Source: Liolophura sinensis (lineage: Eukaryota > Mollusca > Polyplacophora > Chitonida > Chitonidae). Taken from it: 64,000 nt of DNA. Under the pieces are notes generated by a model that did no database searches, was not told the DNA's origin, and was given only the letters and a program-made list of their open reading frames with translations. Positions 38,799 through 63,600 of the stretch are shown one piece after another. Positions within the stretch are counted from its first letter, which is position 1; each line of letters begins with the position of its first letter. The DNA lies in assembly GCF_032854445.1 (NCBI RefSeq), contig NC_088300.1, positions 11,625,191-11,689,190 of the forward strand. Direction: 5' to 3'. The translations under genes and the position numbers were made by a program.

Positions 38799-41700
38799 AT
38801 GGAGCTTATACCTCTTCATAAACACCAGAACTACCTGGATGCCTGTGCTGAAGTTCTGAATGAAGAATGGCCAAGAAGCAAAAATGCTAGGTGTGTTGTT
38901 AAAATTTTAAATCCTTATAAACCGTATAGATAAAATCTTTGATAACTTTGTGAATTTGTTGAAATGTTGAAAATTAACTAAAAAAAATTTGCAGGAAACA
39001 CCAATCAAATAAATAAATTAATTGATAGCCGTTATAGGAAAATAAATCTTTATGCTGTTTGTCCTTCAACACAGGCTTCACAGCTTGGAGAAGTCATGTG
39101 ATCACCTACCTACCTGTCTGATACTTTTAGATGACAACAAGAAGGTGATTGGGCACAGTCGCCTCAGCCAGATGAGAGGTCGTGAAGGGGCATGTTTGGT
39201 GGAGTCAGGTAGACATTCACTTCTACTGTTAACTGCTCTGTCTCATTTTGTTATTGTGCAATTCAAAATATCAAGCAGTTTGTGCTATTCAGTAAATAGG
39301 AAATATCAGCAAGCTAATGTGATAGTGTAAACAATGCAGATTTTGAAAAAGAGCAACAAGCTGGGCAATTGACTGATCACTCCCAGTGATGGACATACCC
39401 AGAACATGTGAGTTTTGTTATTCAGCATTATGACAACACGGTGACGTTCATTTGTGCTGTGTCACTTTAGAATATATCCTAAACTACATATCAAGAAAAG
39501 GAAACCATGCATTTCATGCATCCTTTAAAGTTGGGTTTGCCTGTAACAAGGTCAATATCAGTGGTTTACATTAGTTTCCTCCCACTTTAAACTTGATTGC
39601 TGTCATCTAAGTGAAAATTCTTATGCACTTTTTTAAACATTAATCAGGTAAATAGATAAATTGTTATATACTCACTTTTGATTAAGATACTGGTAATAAT
39701 ACTGCTATTGTAAACATTTTCTTGTACAGGGATGAGTGTTACATATACTTCAACCTTGTCACATGTTTGCAAGGTGTTCAGTCAAGCATATTGTGAAGGT
39801 ATTATTCTGTGTAGAATGATAAAATTATACTTTTTGTGAAGCCCTGAAATTGGCCAACTCAACCAATGTGGTTTTATCTCCAAAATCAAATTGAAGAAAT
39901 GTGCAAAATTTGTACTGAAAGTTGCTCTTCATGTGCGAAATGGACGAGGAATTAGGGTAGCTTCAATCTTTAATTCCTTTAGTTGTTGTGCGGAAAACTG
40001 TTCGTGGTCAAGGTCATGGAAGAAGCATCATGGAGAAGACAGAGGAATACGCCAAAAGGTTTGTCCATTTTTATCACGAGTTGTGACAATAAGCCCAATT
40101 AACTTTAGGATGGGCATCCTGCACACCTGGAGAATTAACCTGTCATTCGTCAGTATGGCAATCAAATAAAAGAAATTATTACTGAATGCCATAGCCTTTT
40201 TTGTAGAATGTCTTGAATATGCACGTACCAGTATTTGGAAAGGTTTTTGGCCCGTTATAAACTATGATCCATGACAATCACTGGGGACTTTTCCTCCAAA
40301 GTGTTTGGCCTCTCTGCAGATGACAGCTAGTGTCTAGACCTGTGCAGCCACATGTTCACATCCATCATTTCATCTTGCCATAAAGGTGATTCCATCCACC
40401 ATAAAGGTGTGATTTCATCCACCATAAAGGTGATTTCATCCAGCCATAAAGGTGATTTCATCCAGCCATAAAGGTGATTTCATCCACCATAAAGGTGATT
40501 TCATCCAGCCATAAAGGTGATTTCATCCAGCCATAAAGGTGATTTCATTCGCCATAAAGGTGATTTCATCCACCATAAAGGTGATTTCATCCAGCCATAA
40601 AGGTGATTTCATCCACCATAAGGGTGATTTTGTCCAGCCATAAAGGTGATTTCGTCCAGCCATAAAGGTGATTTCATCACCATAAAGGTGATTTCGTCCA
40701 GCCATAAAGGTGATTTCGTCCATTCATAAAGGTGATTTCATCCAACCATAAAGGTGATTTCATCCACCATAAAGGTGATTTCATCCAACCATAAAGGTGA
40801 TTTCATCCAGCCATAAAGGTGATTTCATCCAACCATAAAGGTGATTTCATCCAGCCATAAAGGTGATTTCATCCAGCCATAAAGGTGATTTCATCCAGCC
40901 ATAAAGGTGATTTCATCCAACCATAAAGGTGATTTCATCCAACCATAAAGGTTATAGACACCATGTAAGTACATTATTCTTGAACAAATTTCATATGTAA
41001 CATACTTGATGATGTTTCTGAATCTTTTCAAAGGAGAACAATTTGCATGAAGTAGTTGCTCGTAGTGTGTACTGTTGGTTGCTTATTGGGAGCAAGTTAA
41101 CTCTTGATCCATTTTTTAAAAATTTCCACAGGAAAGGTTTCCAAACAATGTACCTGACAACACATGATAAACAGGGATTTTACCAGAGACTGGGATATGA
41201 ATTCTGTGAACCGGTGGTCAGCTTTGGAGGTGACTTTGCCAACTTGCCAGAGAGCTTTGTGAGTTATGGATATTTACACACTCACCAAAAGCCACAATCA
41301 CTTGTTGTAATCGATCACTGGTCGTACCTTGTTCAACATGTTCATGACATTTCAGTGGAATACTTGTGTCAAGAACAGGTCATATATTAAGTTGATTTGT
41401 AAAATATTTTATATGTTGTAGAAAAGGAACAATGTGGGAAGTACAGAATAAAAATATGACATGACTCAAATCAAGAAACTCTTATTGCATACATTATGTA
41501 ATGTTTATACATGTATCTTCCTAAAATCTTATTTCACTGTATGATGACTGTTCTTGTGCAGGCAAAGATATATAGGCTTGAGTGAACTGGATACTGTATT
41601 TTAGCTAAAGTTTAGCATTTTTTAAGTGATGCATTTTGTTTGACCCCTATTGATTCCTCCACACTTCTATTCTTCTAAAGAGTGTTTTGTAAAGTTTGGT

Positions 41701-48695: not shown

Positions 48696-51600
48696 GTTTT
48701 TGTTTTGATTCCTGCAGTCAGGTTTAATATTTTTATGGTATTGACTGAAAGTGAAATCTCCGAACACAGCGTTAAGGTATTCTGCCTCAATGAATGACTA
48801 CATATGTCACCTGTGTCAAAATACAATGTATGCAGCCAGATTATTTTATATTGTTAAAAAAAAAAAAAGAAATGGGAACTGTTATCTGCAACTGTAGCTG
48901 TGGGGTTACTCTCATTTAGCAATGCAGTTGAGAGAGTTACGGAGGGAAACAGCCGCAGGTGTGTCGTTTTGATGGTAAGTAAGAAACATTTCCCGCTGTT
49001 CACACACGTATTAAAACTTCCCTAGCATAAATCGATGTCAACTGTGGACTCCTGTTGTGAGACTCACCGAACCAAAAGGGTCCATGGCAATCACGTTTGT
49101 TCATGAAATATTAATCATGTAACTAACACTTGTAAACAGATCAAGATGGTGGCCACAGTAGTGTACACACTGAAAATGGCCTTTCTTGTCAATCTGTATT
49201 ATTGCCGTGGACTATGTTTGGTTAGGCCAACTTAAGAACAGGCTGGTTAATTTGTAGGAACATTTTGTTGGGAAGTTGTAATGTGGGTGTGAATAGCAGT
49301 AAATGTTCTTAACCACCAATCCAACAAATTTGTGACTGCTTCCCTGAGTAACTCTCGCAACAGCATGGTGAGTTACACCACTCCGTAACTACGGCAGTGA
49401 GTTACACCACTCCGTAACTACGGCAGTGAGTTACACCACTCCGTAACTACGGCAGTGAGTTACACCACTCCGTAACTACGGCAGTGAGTTACACCACTCC
49501 GTAACTACGGCAGTTGGGAAGTTCATGTAACTGTTCAATGCTTAACGTCCATTCAAGAAAGAATCAGCTTTTCACAGTGAATATCTGAGTGGGGAGTCAA
49601 CATCAAACAGTGGCATTAAAATGGACTTTATAACTCCCCCATTATATGTTGCATTGCATTCTAACTAAAACAAATGAATGGCTAATCACCCCCAACAAAG
49701 CTCATCATGTGTTTGCTATTTCTAATCCTCACAGTCACATCCAAGATCCGGAACTTGAAGGACTACCATTACCGTATCATCAACAACCTGTCTCCTCAGC
49801 CAACAGGTGTGGATATTGCCAACACCCTCAAATACTTCTCACAGACTCTTCTCAGGTGAGAACTGACCCGAGTCATCATTGACTGAGTATTGTTATTGGT
49901 TACTAGACTCGATCTGCAACCAGCAGTAGAAATTCCAAGCTCGCAAATAAGCAGCCTGACAAGGAAATTTTGTCATCTGGCATAAATCATATCAAGTATA
50001 AATTAAGTGGTGCCTGACAAACTTGACAATGTAAATAACATAGGAAATCTTCAAACCAGAAGTAAACGAATTCCATTGGTCTCCAATAGCTTATTGGTTT
50101 TTCATGTAGTTGAAGTTGTCAGCTACTTAATATGGTGCAGTGCATGATGGGTGCGTCAAGGACAGGTTAGTTGTGGAGTAGGGTAACTCTCATCGAGCAA
50201 CGCAGTTCCCAGAGTTATGGAGAGAAAGAGCCCCCAAATGTGTCGGATTGACGGTAAGGAACATTTACAGCTGTTCGTACGAGCATTAAGTCTTCCCTAG
50301 CATAAATCAATGTCATCAGCATGTTCCTAAATCTTAACTAACCTAATCTTATGTTGGTCTAGCCAAAAGTAGTCTATGGCAATAACACAAATTGAAAAGA
50401 AGGACATGTTTAAGGTGTACCCTACTGCGTGCACAGTCTTGAAAACTCACTACATGCTATGGTATAGGCTTGAAAAATGTGATGATTTTTCTTGACGAGA
50501 CATGATTACCATGATCCCTTTTGGGACTGCAAGTCTCACAACACGTTAGTTTCTTAAAGAGGTGCCCATTAATGGTTGATGCCATGTCATGCTAGGGAAG
50601 ATTTAGAGCCCATGTGAACAGTGGTAAATGTTACTAATTGTTAATATGACAAATTTGGGGCTAGTATTCTCCGTAACTCACGCAACTGTATAGCTATATA
50701 ACTGTATAAGTTTTACCTCACTCCGCAATTAGTTCCAGGTAAGCATCATCCTGCAGGTAATATCGATATAGCTTTTGTGTGCAAAACTCTGTTTTAAACA
50801 GTTTGTGATACCAGCCCTATGAATTATATGAAAATTGCTGTTTTGTGTCATATATCAAGCTGCCTTGAGAAAAGAAAACTGACAAAAGAGTTAGTCATTC
50901 AGTTATTATTAGCATCTTGTAGTTTGATTTCATCAGGACAGAAGTGAGATGAGTGACAACTGAGATGTGTAGAGCTTTCATGTCACTAATCAGAACTGTT
51001 TGCTATAAGTGTGTTGAAGGATGTCCCAAACATCCCGGCTGAGAGTTTTGGCCCGCGACAGAGAGACAGTGTCAGATTGTCCATCTTCCCCAACCTGAAC
51101 TATTGTGGACTGTACAAGGCAGTGTTAGGAATTATCGATGTAGTTCCTCTTTTGCAGTTTGGACAACTGGGTTTGTATATTTTTTATTCATTAATAAGTT
51201 GTAGAGGATTTAATTAACCTGTTTTTGGTTTTTTTTTTTAAATGACAGCAAAATGAAGAATTAACTTAACTCTCTAAGCAGTAGCTTTAGGGTCAGTATA
51301 AATTCTATAAGTACATTGAATGAATGTGTATATATATATATGATAACAACTACTTGTCAGATAGACTGCATTTGAAAATGCGTATGATTTTTCCACAGAA
51401 TGGCAGGAGAAATGAAATATTATATTCATGAAACCAAACATTCCCTTGAACTAGCAGTTATATTTACATAACAGTGAAAAAATTGCCAATATTGTGGCAT
51501 CATGCCATGACCATTTCCAACTAATTTACTATGCATATTACAAATATTTTGATTATTGCGAAATATAAAGTGGTATAATTTCTGTTAAGAAGATACAAGC

Positions 51601-54600: not shown

Positions 54601-57600
54601 ACCTTGATAAAAAACATGTGGTCTTAGATGAACCTTATGTGCGAGTATAATGTGTTATTTGAAATTCACAGGAACTATGCTGAGGTCTAGGGGTTACGAG
54701 TGGGTGCCTTTCAGTAACGAAGTTTGTTTTAATCTTTCCTTAAGCAGGGAATTTGTAGATTTATCCAACTCTCATTTCTTTTGGGTCTTTTATAACAATA
54801 AGTGGGCTCCTATGGCCATTAGTTGAAGACCGCTTGTCTTCATGTGAAGAAGTTTGTCAGCGACTTGCCTGTGGTCTGTGGTTTACCCAGGCAATCAAGT
54901 TTCCTCCACCCATGAAACTAACTGCCACTGTATAAGTAATAAGGTCTTTAATAAGTCGATATTCAGAAGTGAAATAATTAATTAAATTTAAATTCATATT
55001 GTGTAGATTATATGTAGCTCCAGTTTAGATTTGATTTTAATTTTGAAGTTGTCGCTAAATGTTTGGTTCTGTAATCAGTTCAAGGAATCTGGTACTGACT
55101 CATATATTTGGACATAATTTTATTTAATACATGTCATGTGAAATTCATTGTAGATGCTGACCCTATTGAGTGATAGTATTTATTAACAACATTAGCTTGT
55201 ATTTAAAATTTAAAATAAGATTGTCAGAAAACACGTCTTTTCAGTAAGATGTCCTAAACTTACAGAAGATACATAATTTGCAGAACTCTGAACAGTTTTT
55301 GACTTTCATGTATGAAATTGCATCCAAAGCAAATCATAAATTATCACGTACATTTATGCAATATCTTTGGTACATTGTAATATTTTTCTTCTTGCATGTA
55401 ACATTTGATTTCTCCATTTCTTTATTTTTTTTTTACTTCACTGTTGTTACTTGTGTGCGGCTTGTTGGTCTGTGATAATAGGATTTACATTCCCTGGTAA
55501 GATAAAGATCACCAGCTATATATGTGTATGGGCACGTAGACTTAACCTCTATAGAGGAAGCACCTGTCGGTTTAAATATGTAGATGCATAGCTACTGTTG
55601 TTTTTCTATGACCTACGTTACATGTTATGTGTGGAGTGTAAGTTAGAAAGACATACCTGTTTAGTTGTTGTTGACACTCCGAATTCAAGCATTAGAAACA
55701 CCTGTCAGTTTTAGCTTGAAGATCTCTGGTTGCACTTGTGAATGTTTAAATGATAACAACAGTTTAAAACATGGGCGAAAATGGCTAATGGACCATCTAC
55801 ACATGTATTAGAGCATAAACTCAGCATCTAATGAAGATACATATATGTACAGATTTTAAAATTGTGGTCATATTTATCAAAATTATAGCGCTTATGTACA
55901 TATTGATTTTATGGTAGTCGTGGTTGGAGTGATGAAGACTTCATCTCTTTAATGGCTATTTGAACTTAAGATCTTTTACTAACACCTGGCTGGTCCTTTA
56001 ACAGAAAACATCACCAGACATAAACTCGTCTTCTAATATGATTTGTAGCGAAAGAAAAAGAGTGGAGCTGTGTCAGACTCCTGTTGTATTCAAGGTTTTC
56101 TCCAGATTGTAACATAAACACGTGTTGTCAGCAGTTGTTGCACAGTAATTTTAGTGCTGTGATAATCTCTATTGCTACCACTAGACATAATCCAGGTAGG
56201 CCTACACAATTTGAGTTTTGATATGATGATCATGATGATTTTGCAAACTTGGTACAATTAACACTTGTAGTACATTTAGTAGTTCAGAATTCAGATAACA
56301 AACTTCACATCTCTTTAACTGATTATACTCAAGCTGGATCTGGTACTAAATTGCTAAATCAGGAGATGAGGAAAGTGAAGAGGGGAAGGTCCTTACAGAT
56401 GTTCAGGGAGATAACTCTTTTTTTCCATTTCATGATGTATATGACTTTGTTTTCATAAAAGTACTCACATGGCATATCTGTATAGTTCTCTAGAGTAGAT
56501 GTGTTGCTAGTAAATGAAATACATAATGAGCATATGTAGGTAGAATTAGCACTGTGCAGTAATACATCAGTTTAATTCAACTCTGATATTTTGTACATTG
56601 ACTTCCTCATTACTGTGACCTATGTAGATGCAATGTATTGGCATTACCCAGGCTTTTTCCATGATATAGTACCTTCATGTACTTTTTCTACATGTAGGAC
56701 ATCAGTGACATCTTGATAGCCATTCAATACATTCAGTGTTTCTACAAAGCATACTAATAACAGTTAATAGCTGATAACAGTGAATATTATAAATTCTGTT
56801 TTTTTTTTTAGAATTGCAGCATACAACTGTGATTCTGTTTTTTTCAAATTTCAGCATACAACTGTGATTGAAATTTTCATGTTTTGGCTTCTTTGTTTTT
56901 TTTCTTTCTTTTTTTCATTTCCAAAATGTTTTGGGGTAAAAATTTTTCCCCACATTGGCTGTGTCCATACATGTTTTTTAGTTTTTTGTAATTACTGAAC
57001 CTTGCCTATATTGGTGAATGAAGGGATAAATTTGTCCCAGTTATGGACATTGCAGAGTTGGGTCATTCTTGGTGTAATCAGATTTTATTATGATTGCACT
57101 GTCTCGTCTAATGAATGAAAGTTACTACAATCTTTCTTAAATCTAAGGGTCTGTTCCATTCGCTCTCCCATGGCCACTGGAGGAGGTGGTTTCGTTCTAC
57201 TGGAGGAGACCAGCAACGCCACAGCGTCTGACTCCGTTGGAGTTGGTGGCGTGTATCATAGCGTCTTCACTCACCCAACTTGACGTGACTTTCAGAGATG
57301 TGTAACACTGTGACGTCACACTGTGTCCTCCAGTGGCCACTGAATCCGCCACCAGTGGGGGTCAGATCGAATCTGCCACCAGTGGGGGTCGGATCGAATC
57401 TGCCACCAGTGGGGGTCGGATCGAATCTGCCACCAGTGGGGGTCGGATCGAATCTGCCACCAGTGGGGGTCGGATCAACGAATGGAATGCACCCTAGAAT
57501 ACTTGGACATCTGGCAATATTTGGTTATTAGGCCATCAATAAAAATATCTTTCCCTGATAACCAAAACGCTTTAAAAATGCCCTATGCTGTAATTTGTAA

Positions 57601-60600
57601 AGGGTTTAAGGTGGAATTTTGTCTATCTGTTTTTCTCTCAGTGTTAATTTTTAAAATGAGTATCATTTCCATTAGCCAAATTAAGAAAAAAAGGAGATTC
57701 CTCACAGACATACACTAATTTTTTCCTGATATGGTTAAGTTCCACAAAACAAAGAATGTTTTAAGGATGGCCTAAAGGAATCTGTTGTGAATGTTTGATA
57801 TCTCTAGTATTTCTTAGATAATTCTCTTAATCTGCAATTTTTGCACTAAATTTAACGAAAATACGTTCCATTTAACACACCCAAATGTAAACATTTGTGT
57901 CAGGCTTTGTAGCTGTTGGTCTGAATGCACTATACTGTACATGTGTTTCTGGATTATATATAAATACTTAGATTAATACATAAAAATACTGAAAACACAG
58001 CTTTATGCGGTGCAAAGCAAAGCATGCTTCTGCTTTCTTGTAGTGTTACGTTTTCGTAGTGAGGCTAGCTCTAGATCAATGTAGTATTTATGTTATATGA
58101 CCTTTTGTTTTATTGAAGATGAGCAGATGTCTTTACCTAATGAAATGGTTAACAGATACATGTACTTACAAAGCCCTGTCCATTTTGATGACAAATTTCA
58201 GTTTACCCATATATTGTTGTCTCTGTAGTTTTATGTGGTCTTGGTAGCAATTTTGACCTACATGTATTTCATTTGACTTATTTGAAGTATAGTTAACATT
58301 TTCTAAACAACTGGTTTGTACCTGTGTGGAATGCATCTTAATGTAGCTGACGTATATGCGAACAAAATTAAACCACCTGTTTCATGATTGAATTGAACTT
58401 TGGAATGTTTGCACATTTTAATAACAAGCCATCAATCCGCTTTCAGCGTGGACCCCTGTGTTGTGCCAAAGAGAAAAGTGTTTGAATGCAAGGAACTGTC
58501 AAGCTGTAAAGGTAAAGTAATACAGTTAAATCAAATAATCTATTGCTGAATATGTAACATGACTATCATTATATTTGATACCTTTTGTTCTAACAAATCT
58601 GGTGAACATGAATGTTGTTTATTGGGTAAATAATGGGAAGGTCTGTCAACAACCTGTGAAGGCAAACAAAAAGACACATAAATCATGAAATACCCACTTC
58701 TATTTTCCTATCAAAACATAATCATGCAAATAAATGTGCTGTTAACAGAAAAACAAGCAGTAGTTAAATTCTAGAATTCCTTTTTAGTTTCATTATATCT
58801 GGCCAATACATTGTTTGCTAGATTGTGCTGTGGAAGCTAAACCTGTATGATCGAGTGCTTGTTTTGGAGCTGGTCACAATGACAGTTTATCTCTCTCTCT
58901 GTCTATGCTGGTAGATGTGCCTGAACCCTGCCCTAGCCATACAGTCTGGAGACAAACCTCCTCCCCTGTACATCTGTAGTGACTGTGTGGATGTCCTGAA
59001 GAGGGATCACGCTGAGTATATGGTGGACATCACACTGCCCATGTCACACATCTCACCTCTGTGTGAGAACAAGGTAAGCACATCAGTCCACATCACACTG
59101 CCCATGTCACACATCTCACCTCTCTGTGAGAACAAGGTGAGCACATCAGTCCACATCACACTGCCCATGTCACACATCTCACCTCTGTGTGAGAACAAGG
59201 TAAGCACATCAGTCCACATCACACTGCCCATGTCACACATCTCACCTCTGTGTGAGAACAAGGTGAGCACATCAGTCCACATCACACTGCCCATGTCACA
59301 CATCTCACCTCTCTGTGAGAACAAGGTGAGCACATCAGTCCACATCACACTGCCCATGTCACACATCTCACCTCTGTGTGAGAACAAGGTAAGCACATCA
59401 GTCCACATCACACTGCCCATGTCACACATCTCACCTCTCTGTGAGAACAAGGTAAGCACATCAGTCCACATCACACTGCCCATGTCACACATCTCACCTC
59501 TCTGTGAGAACAAGGTAAGCACATCAGTCCACATCACACTGCCCATGTCACACATCTCACCTCTCTGTGAGAACCAGGTAAGCACATCAGCCCACATCAC
59601 ACTGCCCATGTCGCACATCTCACCCCTCTGTGAGAACAAGCTGAGAACATCACAGTCCACACCACACAGCAAGTGTCACCCATTTCATCTCTCTGTGAGG
59701 ACAAGGTGAGCACATCAGTCCACATCACACTGCCCATGTCACACATCTCACCTCTCTGTGAGAACCAGGTAAGTACATCAGTCCACATCACACTGCCCAT
59801 GTCACACATCTCACTCCTCTATGAAAACAAGCTGAGCACATCACAGTTCACATCACACTGCTCATGTCTCACATCTCACCTGACTGAGAACAGGGTGAGT
59901 ACATCAAACTGCCCATGTCTCACATCTTACAAGTCTGCGAGAACAAGGTGAGCAGGCCAAGCTTTCCATGTCACTCATCTTACCTGTCTGTAAGAACAAG
60001 GTGAGCACATCACCCTTCCTATGTCTCATATGTAAGAGCACATCACCCTGCAAGTCTTACATCTCACCCCTCTTGTTGTAAAAACAAGGTGAGCACATCA
60101 CTCTGTCCATATCTCACATCTGACCCCTCTGTGAGAAGAAGGTGAGCATGCCAAACTTCCCATGTCACACATCTTACCTGTCTGTAAGAACAAGGTGAGC
60201 ACATCACCCTTCCTATGTCTCATATCTCATCCTTCTGTGAGAACAAGGTGATTACATCAAATGCCCATTTCAACCCCTGATACCTCTGTGAGAACAAGGT
60301 GAGGACATCACCCTGCCCATGTCTCACATCTCATCCTTCTGTGGGCATCAAATGCCCATGTCACACATCAGATACCTCTGTTAGAACATGGTGATCATGC
60401 CAGACTTCCAATGTCACACATCTCACCTGTCTGTAACAACAAGGTGAGCACATCACCCCACCCATGTCTCATACCTCATCCCCCTGTGAGAACAAGGTGA
60501 GCGCATCAAATGCCTATGTCACACCTCTGATACCTCTGAGAAAAAGATGAGTATATCACCCTGCACATGTGTCACATCTAACCTGTCTTTGAGAACAAGG

Positions 60601-63600
60601 TGAGCACATCAAACGCCCATGTCACATATCTGATTCTTCTGTGAGAACAAGGTGAGTACGTCAGTTGCCCACGTCACACCTCTGATACCTCTGAGAACAG
60701 GGTGAGTATATTACCCCCCCCCCCCATGTGTCACATCTCACCTGTCTTTGAGAACAAGGTGAGCGCATCAAATGCCCATGTCACATATCTGATACCTCTG
60801 TGAGAACAAGGTGAGTATGTCAAATGCCCCATGTCACACATCTGATACCTCTGTGAGAACAAGGTGAGTACATCAAATGTTCATGTCACACCTCTGATAC
60901 CTCTGTGAGAACAAGGTGAGTATATTACCCTGCCCATGTGTCACATCTCACCTGTCTTTGAGAACAAGGTGAGCACATTAAATGCCCATGTCACAAATCT
61001 GATACCTCTGTGAGAACAAGCACACCATTCTGCAGTACATTTCCTCACTTGACTATTACAGAACAGGATGGGTACACATAAATGCCTAAATATTGCAGCT
61101 ATATGCACATGTTGTTCAGGGCTGGACTACTCCTGTAAATGTATCTAACTTATAAAGCTGTGTGGGGACATCATGACATTGGACGATAAATATAACAGTT
61201 AGTCTGAATTATTGTCATCAGCAATAGCGGGGACCATAGAGATAGCAGAAGCTGGAAAAGAACTCCTATTAACTGTGGTCATCTTTGTGGTGGTATTAAG
61301 CTTTCCCAGTTTCTTTCCCTTCAGAAATATATTGTCTATCTTTAAAAATGTCTTGTTATGCAGACTTACAGGCATGTCAGCATGTGATGTCAATGTAAAT
61401 TGACCTAGGTAATAATACTTTCAGGTTTATGTAATGTGAATTTGATAATAGAGTGGTATTTATGGGTTTATGTTTGTTCTATCTAATCCTTTTGTGATCT
61501 TTTGTACAGAACTGCTCTGCCACGGATCACACGGCGGTCTGCACCTGCTTCTCAATTGAGTGTGCCAGTTACAATGGGAATCACCCTATCCGTTACTGCC
61601 GAATCTGTCACTTTTCTCGTCACTCCACCGATCATGGCATGACCCATATCTTTCATGACAGCATTCCTGACATCTGGGATTGCCCCTCTGACATGCAGCG
61701 GTACCTGCTGGATGCCATTGTTAGGTGACATTGAGTTTAAGAATGTGGAATTTTCAAAATGTTAATCTGTTACCATTTGGTAGTATCTGCATGTAGCTTA
61801 CCCAGATTATATACAATTGCTAAGACCTAATCTGAATTTCATATTTGTAAGTCAAATTCAGTAATCATTTTGTAAATGTCTCATTGACAGCTTGTTGAAG
61901 GAGGCTCAGCCTATAGAATCAAAGCGTATGGTGGAAATGGGTGAGGAACATCGTCAGCGGGTGATGGATGATGAGGACTTCTTTGAGGCGGAGGAGGCAG
62001 AGGAGAGGAAACTGCTGAGTCGATATGGGATCTGGCTCATGGTGGAGCTCTGCAACACCAGAGAGGACATCCCAATAGTAAGGGATAGAGTTATGCCCCT
62101 TGTCAAGAGACTGTGCTGGCTTTGTGCAAGAAAAGCAAAAATGTTAAAGTTGTATAAACAGTTGAATTTTTGAAAATGGAACTACACTTTGTAGTATATG
62201 TTTTCTCCATAGATACATTTGAAAAGTCCAATATTTCTTAATTATAATTTGCAAATTTATTCCTGGCCAAAAGTTGTACAGCAATGTGTAATATTTTAAA
62301 CCACAGTGTAGTCTTATTTGATTTGATTGGTACTTTACGCCGTACTCAAGAATATTTCACTTATACGACGGCGGCCAGCATCATGGTGGGAGGAAACCGG
62401 GCAGAGCCCAGGCGAAACCCACGACCATCCGCAGGTTGCAGGCAGACCTTCCCACTTACGGCCGGAACAGTATAGTCTTAGCTCTGTGAAGTAGTTTGTT
62501 CTCTTTGTGTTAACATCTAGTACTGTTGTAATGCATGCATTCCAACTTCATTAATATTACTGTGTCTTAACATTTGCTTTCAGGAAGTTCTTGGTCGTCT
62601 TTTGGGAATGTTATTCCAGTGGTTTGATTCCACAGCCTATTTGCCTGACGGTGAGTGTTATTTTAGAAGATACAAACAGAATAGATAGTATTGGTGATGG
62701 CCTAGGTTTCAGTCTTGAAATTTGTAATTGTATTTCAGGAAATCGTGACCTGCACATGGAATATCCTTTTGAATTTCCGTTGATAGAATATCTCGCCTTC
62801 TGTGTTGTGTTTGTGCCATGGTTAAATTCAAAGTTGGCTTACTCTGAAGTTTAAAGTACAAAAACTGGCCTAATTTGTAGAAAGGATCAAACAACAACCT
62901 GTGTATCTGTCCATAAATGCAAAATATGGTAACACTGCAGCCATTTTGTTTTTCTTCCATTCTGTTTTTGTGTATATATGTTTACATATATTTTAGTTCT
63001 GCTTGTGTCATTAATCAATTAGGGGCCTCCGCGGCTCAGTTGGTTAGCGTGCTAGCACAGCGCAATGACCCAGGAGTCTCTCACCAATGCAGTCGATGTG
63101 AGTTCAAGTCCAGCTCATGCTGGCTTCCTCTCCAGCCGTGCATAGGAAGGTCTGCCAGCAATCTGCGGATGGCCGTGGGTTTCCCCCGGGCTCTGCCCGG
63201 TTTCCACCCACCATAATGCTGGTGAAATATTCTTGAGTACGGCGTAAAACACCAATCAAATAAATAAATAAAATTAATCAATTTGTCTCCCTTTTATGCC
63301 AGTTGTCACAGCCTTTAGGGTCTTCTGTCGTATGCAAAAGGGGAAAGGGGGTGGACAAAGTTTATGTTTTCTTTCAACACAGTCAACAAATTACAGAATT
63401 ACAGCAGCATCCCAAGCATCGGCCTTATACAAACATATATGTCCATGACGATTTGTTAATGTCAAATACTTATTTTCTCTTTGTGTGTTTGCAGATAATG
63501 TAGGAAATGCATTGGAGAAGCTGAAACCTGAGGTATGGCCACAGAAGCTTAGTTTCTAACATGTTCTAGGTAGTGCATAACTGCAGTCCTTTGGATGTAA

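What the first reader, a model, noticed from the sequence alone, without database searches (positions are those of the whole stretch)
59029..61025. Exon end plus splice donor amplified as an in-frame ladder of 5' splice sites in UNC79
The last 15 codons of exon 9 and the first 18 intronic bases, including a good donor, are repeated with a period of exactly 63 bp (21 codons). The frame stays open over the first ten or so copies to 59709, and the donor is phase 0. The spliceosome could therefore choose among several nearly identical donors, adding n x 21 residues (ITLPMSHISPLCENK-VSTSVH) between the GDKPPPLY region and the C/H-rich NCSATD exon of a channel scaffold. Alternating GTAAGC and GTGAGC would give graded donor strength, and some copies have lost the GT. 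Array length could vary between alleles. That the array exists is seen directly; its use in splicing is inference.
Basis: partly seen in the sequence, partly recalled or inferred. Interest (0 to 1): 0.75.

Follow-up and report, generated by a model that had tools for sequence, protein, structure and literature searches.

The report
Repeated exon end and splice donor
In a chiton, the end of one UNC79 exon with its splice donor has been copied head-to-tail about 34 times into the intron, and the same has happened to many other exons of this genome; most of those other arrays would break the protein if their extra donors were used, so the cell probably ignores them, and the few in-frame ones, UNC79 among them, would let one measure how it does so.

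Summary
The array is real: ten copies at exactly 63 bp (59029-59658), then decaying 50-92 bp copies to about 61020, in the UNC79 gene of the chiton Liolophura sinensis. The founder is the gene's own conserved exon end: mammalian UNC79 aligns without a gap across the junction at the first donor (59074). Nine intact donors in the 63-bp block are phase 0 and open-frame; donor strength is flat, not graded.

The proposed protein-length ladder is not supported as a purpose. A genome scan shows a class: 13 of 18 AAGGTRAG tandem arrays sampled on scaffold C1 start at an exon end whose own donor is rung one (10 with domain or structure matches, among them RPTOR, MTH1, adaptin, annexin, spectrin). In 10 of the 12 ladders with at least two scored donors, every extra donor shifts the frame or runs into a stop; only UNC79 and one other are open. 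Donors in intronic copies are not specially conserved.

This matches amphioxus 'mirages', minisatellites of exon-intron boundaries reported not to disturb splicing; human 6-16 is the precedent for ladder donors being used. Most likely a mirage spliced mainly at the first donor. New here: the phylum, the genome-wide spread, and two NMD-immune ladders.

The parts
58915..59073 (+). UNC79 exon (MCLNPALAIQSGDKPPPLYICSDCVDVLKRDHAEYMVDITLPMSHISPLCENK), preceded by AG; its last 45 bases are rung zero of the array
   Evidence: PF14776 E 4.6e-12; PDB UNC79 chains E 8e-31 for the joined exons, gap-free over the junction
59029..59658 (+). ten units of exactly 63 bp (45 exonic + 18 intronic); the first is the exon's own end
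59074..59583 (+). nine intact phase-0 donors at 59074, 59137, 59200, 59263, 59326, 59389, 59452, 59515, 59578
59641..59646 (+). tenth copy, donor lost (CTGAGA)
59659..59894 (+). diverged 63-65-bp units; donors 59706 and 59769 out of frame, the one at 59832 lost
59895..61020 (+). older units, mostly 50-53 bp, lacking a 10-bp ACATCA-flanked segment of the 63-bp unit, with higher-order repeats
61510..61724 (+). next UNC79 exon (NCSATDHTAVCTCF...), starting in phase 0

Best explanation
It is a mirage-type minisatellite: a short stretch spanning the exon-intron boundary was tandemly duplicated, and by slippage or unequal exchange the copies multiplied into the intron, youngest beside the exon, oldest and most decayed farther away. 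The first copy is still the real exon end. The spliceosome most likely uses mainly the first donor, at the ancestral junction, and removes the rest as intron; minor use of in-frame rungs 2-9 (+21n residues) is possible but is a by-product. It is one instance of a class common in this genome. Shown: array, founder exon, divergence gradient, class, frame effects. Inferred: duplication mechanism and donor choice.
For: Gap-free homology at the first junction. Divergence from the exon copy rises from 0-6% (rungs 1-9) to 17-34% distally, Spearman 0.72. 13 of 18 AAGGTRAG arrays in the first 50 Mb of C1 begin at coding exon ends, 10 with Pfam or PDB matches, against 1 of 9 reversed-word control arrays, itself a donor ladder on an astacin exon (Fisher p 0.004, or 0.04 with matched exons only). 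In 10 of 12 ladders with at least two scored donors no extra donor is usable. No extra conservation of the donor window. Amphioxus mirages are reported not to disturb splicing.
Against: No RNA evidence. All rungs are strong donors, and human 6-16 shows, by the title of the original paper, that ladder donors can be used. In older UNC79 units the donor region is slightly better conserved than the rest (0.91 versus 0.79, one-sided p 0.04), though units were cut at the donor and the cross-array test finds nothing. The 13/18 exceeds an estimated 40% base rate (p 0.006) but 10/18 does not (p 0.13).
Confidence: 0.72

Rival explanations
1. In-frame donor ladder: several donors are used and UNC79 isoforms carry 0-8 extra 21-residue blocks, possibly tuning the channel complex.
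For: Nine equal phase-0 donors, frame open to 59709; human 6-16 precedent; one further ladder is in frame (L083, 8 rungs).
Against: Period divisible by 3 and no stop is expected in some ladders by chance (2 of 12, p 0.36 against one third); UNC79's own older units are mostly 50-53 bp; no sign of selection on rungs; the insert would fall next to a Cys-rich segment that is ungapped against mammals.
Confidence: 0.2
2. The extra donors act without being spliced, for example as U1-binding decoys that slow splicing or suppress premature polyadenylation.
For: Many strong U1-complementary sites in one intron.
Against: Donor window not conserved beyond other unit positions in exon ladders (median percentile 0.58 versus 0.77 in other arrays).
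Confidence: 0.05
3. Assembly artefact.
For: Coverage is only 14x.
Against: HiFi reads average 8.3 kb against a 2-kb array; copies differ by distinct variants in an age gradient; a duplicated spectrin segment carries two ladders of equal copy number, 95% identical in register.
Confidence: 0.02

Closest known systems
Amphioxus 'mirages' (Adh3, Canestro et al. 2002; globins BflGb6 and BflGb9, PMC3087553; PGBD5, PMC3902484)
   Same: Minisatellite-like tandem duplication of an exon-intron boundary with AG/GT signals in many copies; unit 10-72 bp at Adh3
   Different: Mollusc, not cephalochordate; here found on many genes by a genome scan, almost all on the donor side; the UNC79 units are in frame; splicing not tested
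Human 6-16 (G1P3/IFI6) minisatellite (Turri, Cuin and Porter 1995)
   Same: Tandem array giving multiple splice donors at one exon
   Different: From memory the unit there is 12 bp and isoforms differ by 4 residues; here 63 bp and 21 residues, use unknown
Intron gain by tandem genomic duplication (AG/GT proto-splice model; e.g. PMC4974935)
   Same: Local duplication of sequence holding splice signals
   Different: No new intron here; an old intron is filled with exon-end copies

Membership tests
Mirage (amphioxus) | Tandem repeat unit spans an exon-intron boundary | tested here: met
   45 exonic + 18 intronic bases; exon identity by homology
Mirage (amphioxus) | Minisatellite-like, many copies carrying splice signals | tested here: met
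   about 34 units; nine intact in-frame donors and more distal ones
Mirage (amphioxus) | Regular splicing not disturbed | not testable with these tools
   no RNA data
Mirage (amphioxus) | Length polymorphism or somatic instability | not testable with these tools
   one assembly; two duplicated spectrin ladders keep equal copy number
6-16-type functional donor ladder | Repeat donors in frame with the exon | tested here: met
   nine phase-0 donors, open to 59709
6-16-type functional donor ladder | Transcripts using different repeat donors | not testable with these tools
   no RNA data

The most novel reading that the evidence does not exclude
In this chiton the spliceosome routinely faces, on perhaps hundreds of exons, rows of near-identical strong donors and picks the first; in the in-frame ladders (UNC79 and L083), where NMD cannot hide errors, a measurable share of mRNAs uses later rungs and adds n x 21 (or n x 19) residues.
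Probability: 0.25. Interest if true: 0.7.

Novelty: new member of a known kind. Interest (0 to 1): 0.5.

Why it matters
How a spliceosome picks one donor among identical neighbours is usually studied with engineered duplicates. This genome offers many natural ones in conserved genes. Frame-breaking ladders (RPTOR, MTH1, adaptin) would hide wrong choices through NMD, while the in-frame ones would not, so comparing their transcripts would separate true donor choice from mRNA decay. It also takes mirages out of cephalochordates, suggesting a general route by which exon ends seed intron minisatellites.

Tried and rejected
Microexon or recursive splicing inside units: judged by eye only; the AG before AACAAG is GAG with a short pyrimidine run, so set aside. 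Other arrays in the window (40367-40952, 49368-49514) show no coding exon at their 5' edge by eye. CAGGTRAG arrays in the first 1.4 Mb of C1: 0 of 6 exon-anchored. Acceptor-like TTYYCAGG arrays: 1 clear case of 16 (an fn3 exon), perhaps a second; a polarity effect is possible, but the word is common in non-exonic minisatellites and only 500 bp were read per array. Reversed-word hit counts (1307 v 551; single word 45,588 v 45,085) are a poor control because words differ in minisatellite content. Which of 53 and 63 bp is ancestral could not be polarised. Related chiton genomes could not be searched. Structure prediction of the extended protein was not run: without an alignment it would say little.

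Full report
Identity. The window is G000:C6:11625191-11689190 of a 609-Mb, 632-contig assembly. Contig number, total length and the longest contig (C1, 96,433,062 bp) match the chiton assembly published as Liolophura japonica and later corrected to L. sinensis (PMC11068029, PMC12441733); the mitochondrial contig shows the tRNA order C-Y-W-Q-G-E of the M-C-Y-W-Q-G-E cluster known from molluscs, as recalled from memory (tRNA-Met itself was not called in the piece scanned). The assembly was made from HiFi reads averaging 8.3 kb, so a 2-kb array can be spanned by one read.

The array. TRF gives period 63, 13.9 copies at 59027-59906, then 52-53-bp families to 61020. The first ten copies are spaced exactly 63. 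There are about 34 units in all. Rungs 1-9 differ from the exon copy by 0-6%; distal units by 17-34% (Spearman 0.72). The 63-bp unit differs from the older units mainly by a 10-bp segment flanked by ACATCA; 63 keeps the frame, 53 does not.

The gene. Nine pieces of the UNC-79 family PF14776 lie in order along this stretch. The exon 58915-59073 joined to 61510-61724 aligns to mammalian UNC79 without a gap at the junction, so the donor at 59074 is the ancestral one and the exon end is the founder of the array. Use of rung n+1 would insert 21n residues between LCENK and NCSATD.

Donor quality. Nine phase-0 donors: AAGGTAAGC 11.04 bits, AAGGTGAGC 10.70, the ninth CAGGTAAGC 11.2; U1 pairing -9.5, -9.6 and -11.0 kcal/mol (textbook vertebrate matrix). 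The tenth has lost GT. Later donors are out of frame, one of them (59769, CAGGTAAGT, 12.7) the strongest of all. There is no useful gradation.

A class, not a single case. A genome pattern scan for three AAGGTRAG words 38-66 bp apart listed 18 arrays in the first 50.5 Mb of C1. Reading their flanks, 13 begin where a coding exon ends, the exon's own donor being the first or nearest rung: annexin, ankyrin, MTH1/NUDT1, RPTOR, a DUF3535 (BTAF1-like) exon, adaptin ear, two spectrin exons, a secretin-type and a rhodopsin-type receptor (Pfam or PDB matches; several Pfam scores lie under the curated cut-off, but RPTOR and MTH1 are at 5e-11 and 2e-20 in the PDB), plus three judged by open frame only (L043, L083, L086). 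In L084 and L086 the ladder starts some tens to hundreds of bases downstream of the exon's own donor. Control arrays found with the reversed word: 1 of 9 exon-anchored, and that one is itself a CAG|GTAAGA ladder on an astacin exon. Fisher p 0.004, or 0.04 counting only matched exons. A caveat: by a rough estimate up to about 40% of AAGGTRAG words may be true donors, against which 13/18 gives p 0.006 but 10/18 gives p 0.13. So exon ends are at least as prone to amplification as other sequence; a true hotspot is not proven. Scaling 13 per 50.5 Mb gives roughly 160 such ladders for this one donor word, a crude extrapolation.

Does the ladder serve the protein? For each ladder the extension and reading frame of later rungs were computed. 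Of 14 exons, 12 have at least two scored donors; in 10 of these no later rung is usable (frameshift, or a stop within 1-35 nt of the first donor). Only UNC79 (8 extra rungs) and L083 (57-bp unit, 8 extra rungs) are open. Two of twelve is what one would expect with no selection for frame. The donor window within units is not better conserved than other windows (median percentile 0.58 in exon ladders versus 0.77 in other arrays, p 0.30). In a duplicated spectrin segment both ladders hold 13.9 copies and are 95% identical in register, like the whole segment (94%), so that copy number has not moved since the duplication.

Comparison. Amphioxus mirages are tandem duplications of exon-intron boundaries, with units of 10-72 bp at Adh3, AG/GT signals in many copies, length and somatic instability, and apparently normal splicing by RT-PCR. 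[quoted passage not shown] that paper itself was not read. UNC79 meets the structural definition of a mirage; whether it behaves like amphioxus (first donor only) or like 6-16 (several used) is open, and the class-wide frame data favour the former.

Verdict. A real and well-described array, wrongly read as special to UNC79. New member of a known kind, in a new phylum, with a genome-wide setting that makes donor choice among identical sites testable.

Noticed in passing
G000:C1:38780500-38802500 (L041, L042): Two roughly 94% identical segments about 19 kb apart, each with a spectrin exon and a 13.9 x 50-bp donor ladder of equal copy number.
   Followed up: yes
G000:C1:17066000-17068600 (L083): Second in-frame ladder: 57-bp unit, eight usable extra donors after an unidentified exon of about 77 residues.
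   Followed up: partly
G000:C1:49208600-49210900 (L096): Astacin exon (PF01400, E 5.7e-16) followed by a CAG|GTAAGA ladder of about 62-bp units, found by a control pattern.
   Followed up: partly
G000:C1:12139374-12139970 (L112): Acceptor-like array running up to the start of an fn3 exon, a possible acceptor-side mirage.
   Followed up: partly
G000:C99 and C632: C99 holds seven COX1 matches at about 15.5-kb steps, apparently tandem mitochondrial genomes; C632 is a single 15,209-bp copy.
   Followed up: no
window 49368-49514: 29-bp repeat, 5.1 copies, 100% identical, unit starting GTGAGT; no exon seen beside it.
   Followed up: partly
window 40367-40952 and 57342-57476: 22-bp x 27 and 27-bp x 5 minisatellites; no exon seen at the 5' edge of the first, the second not examined.
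   Followed up: partly
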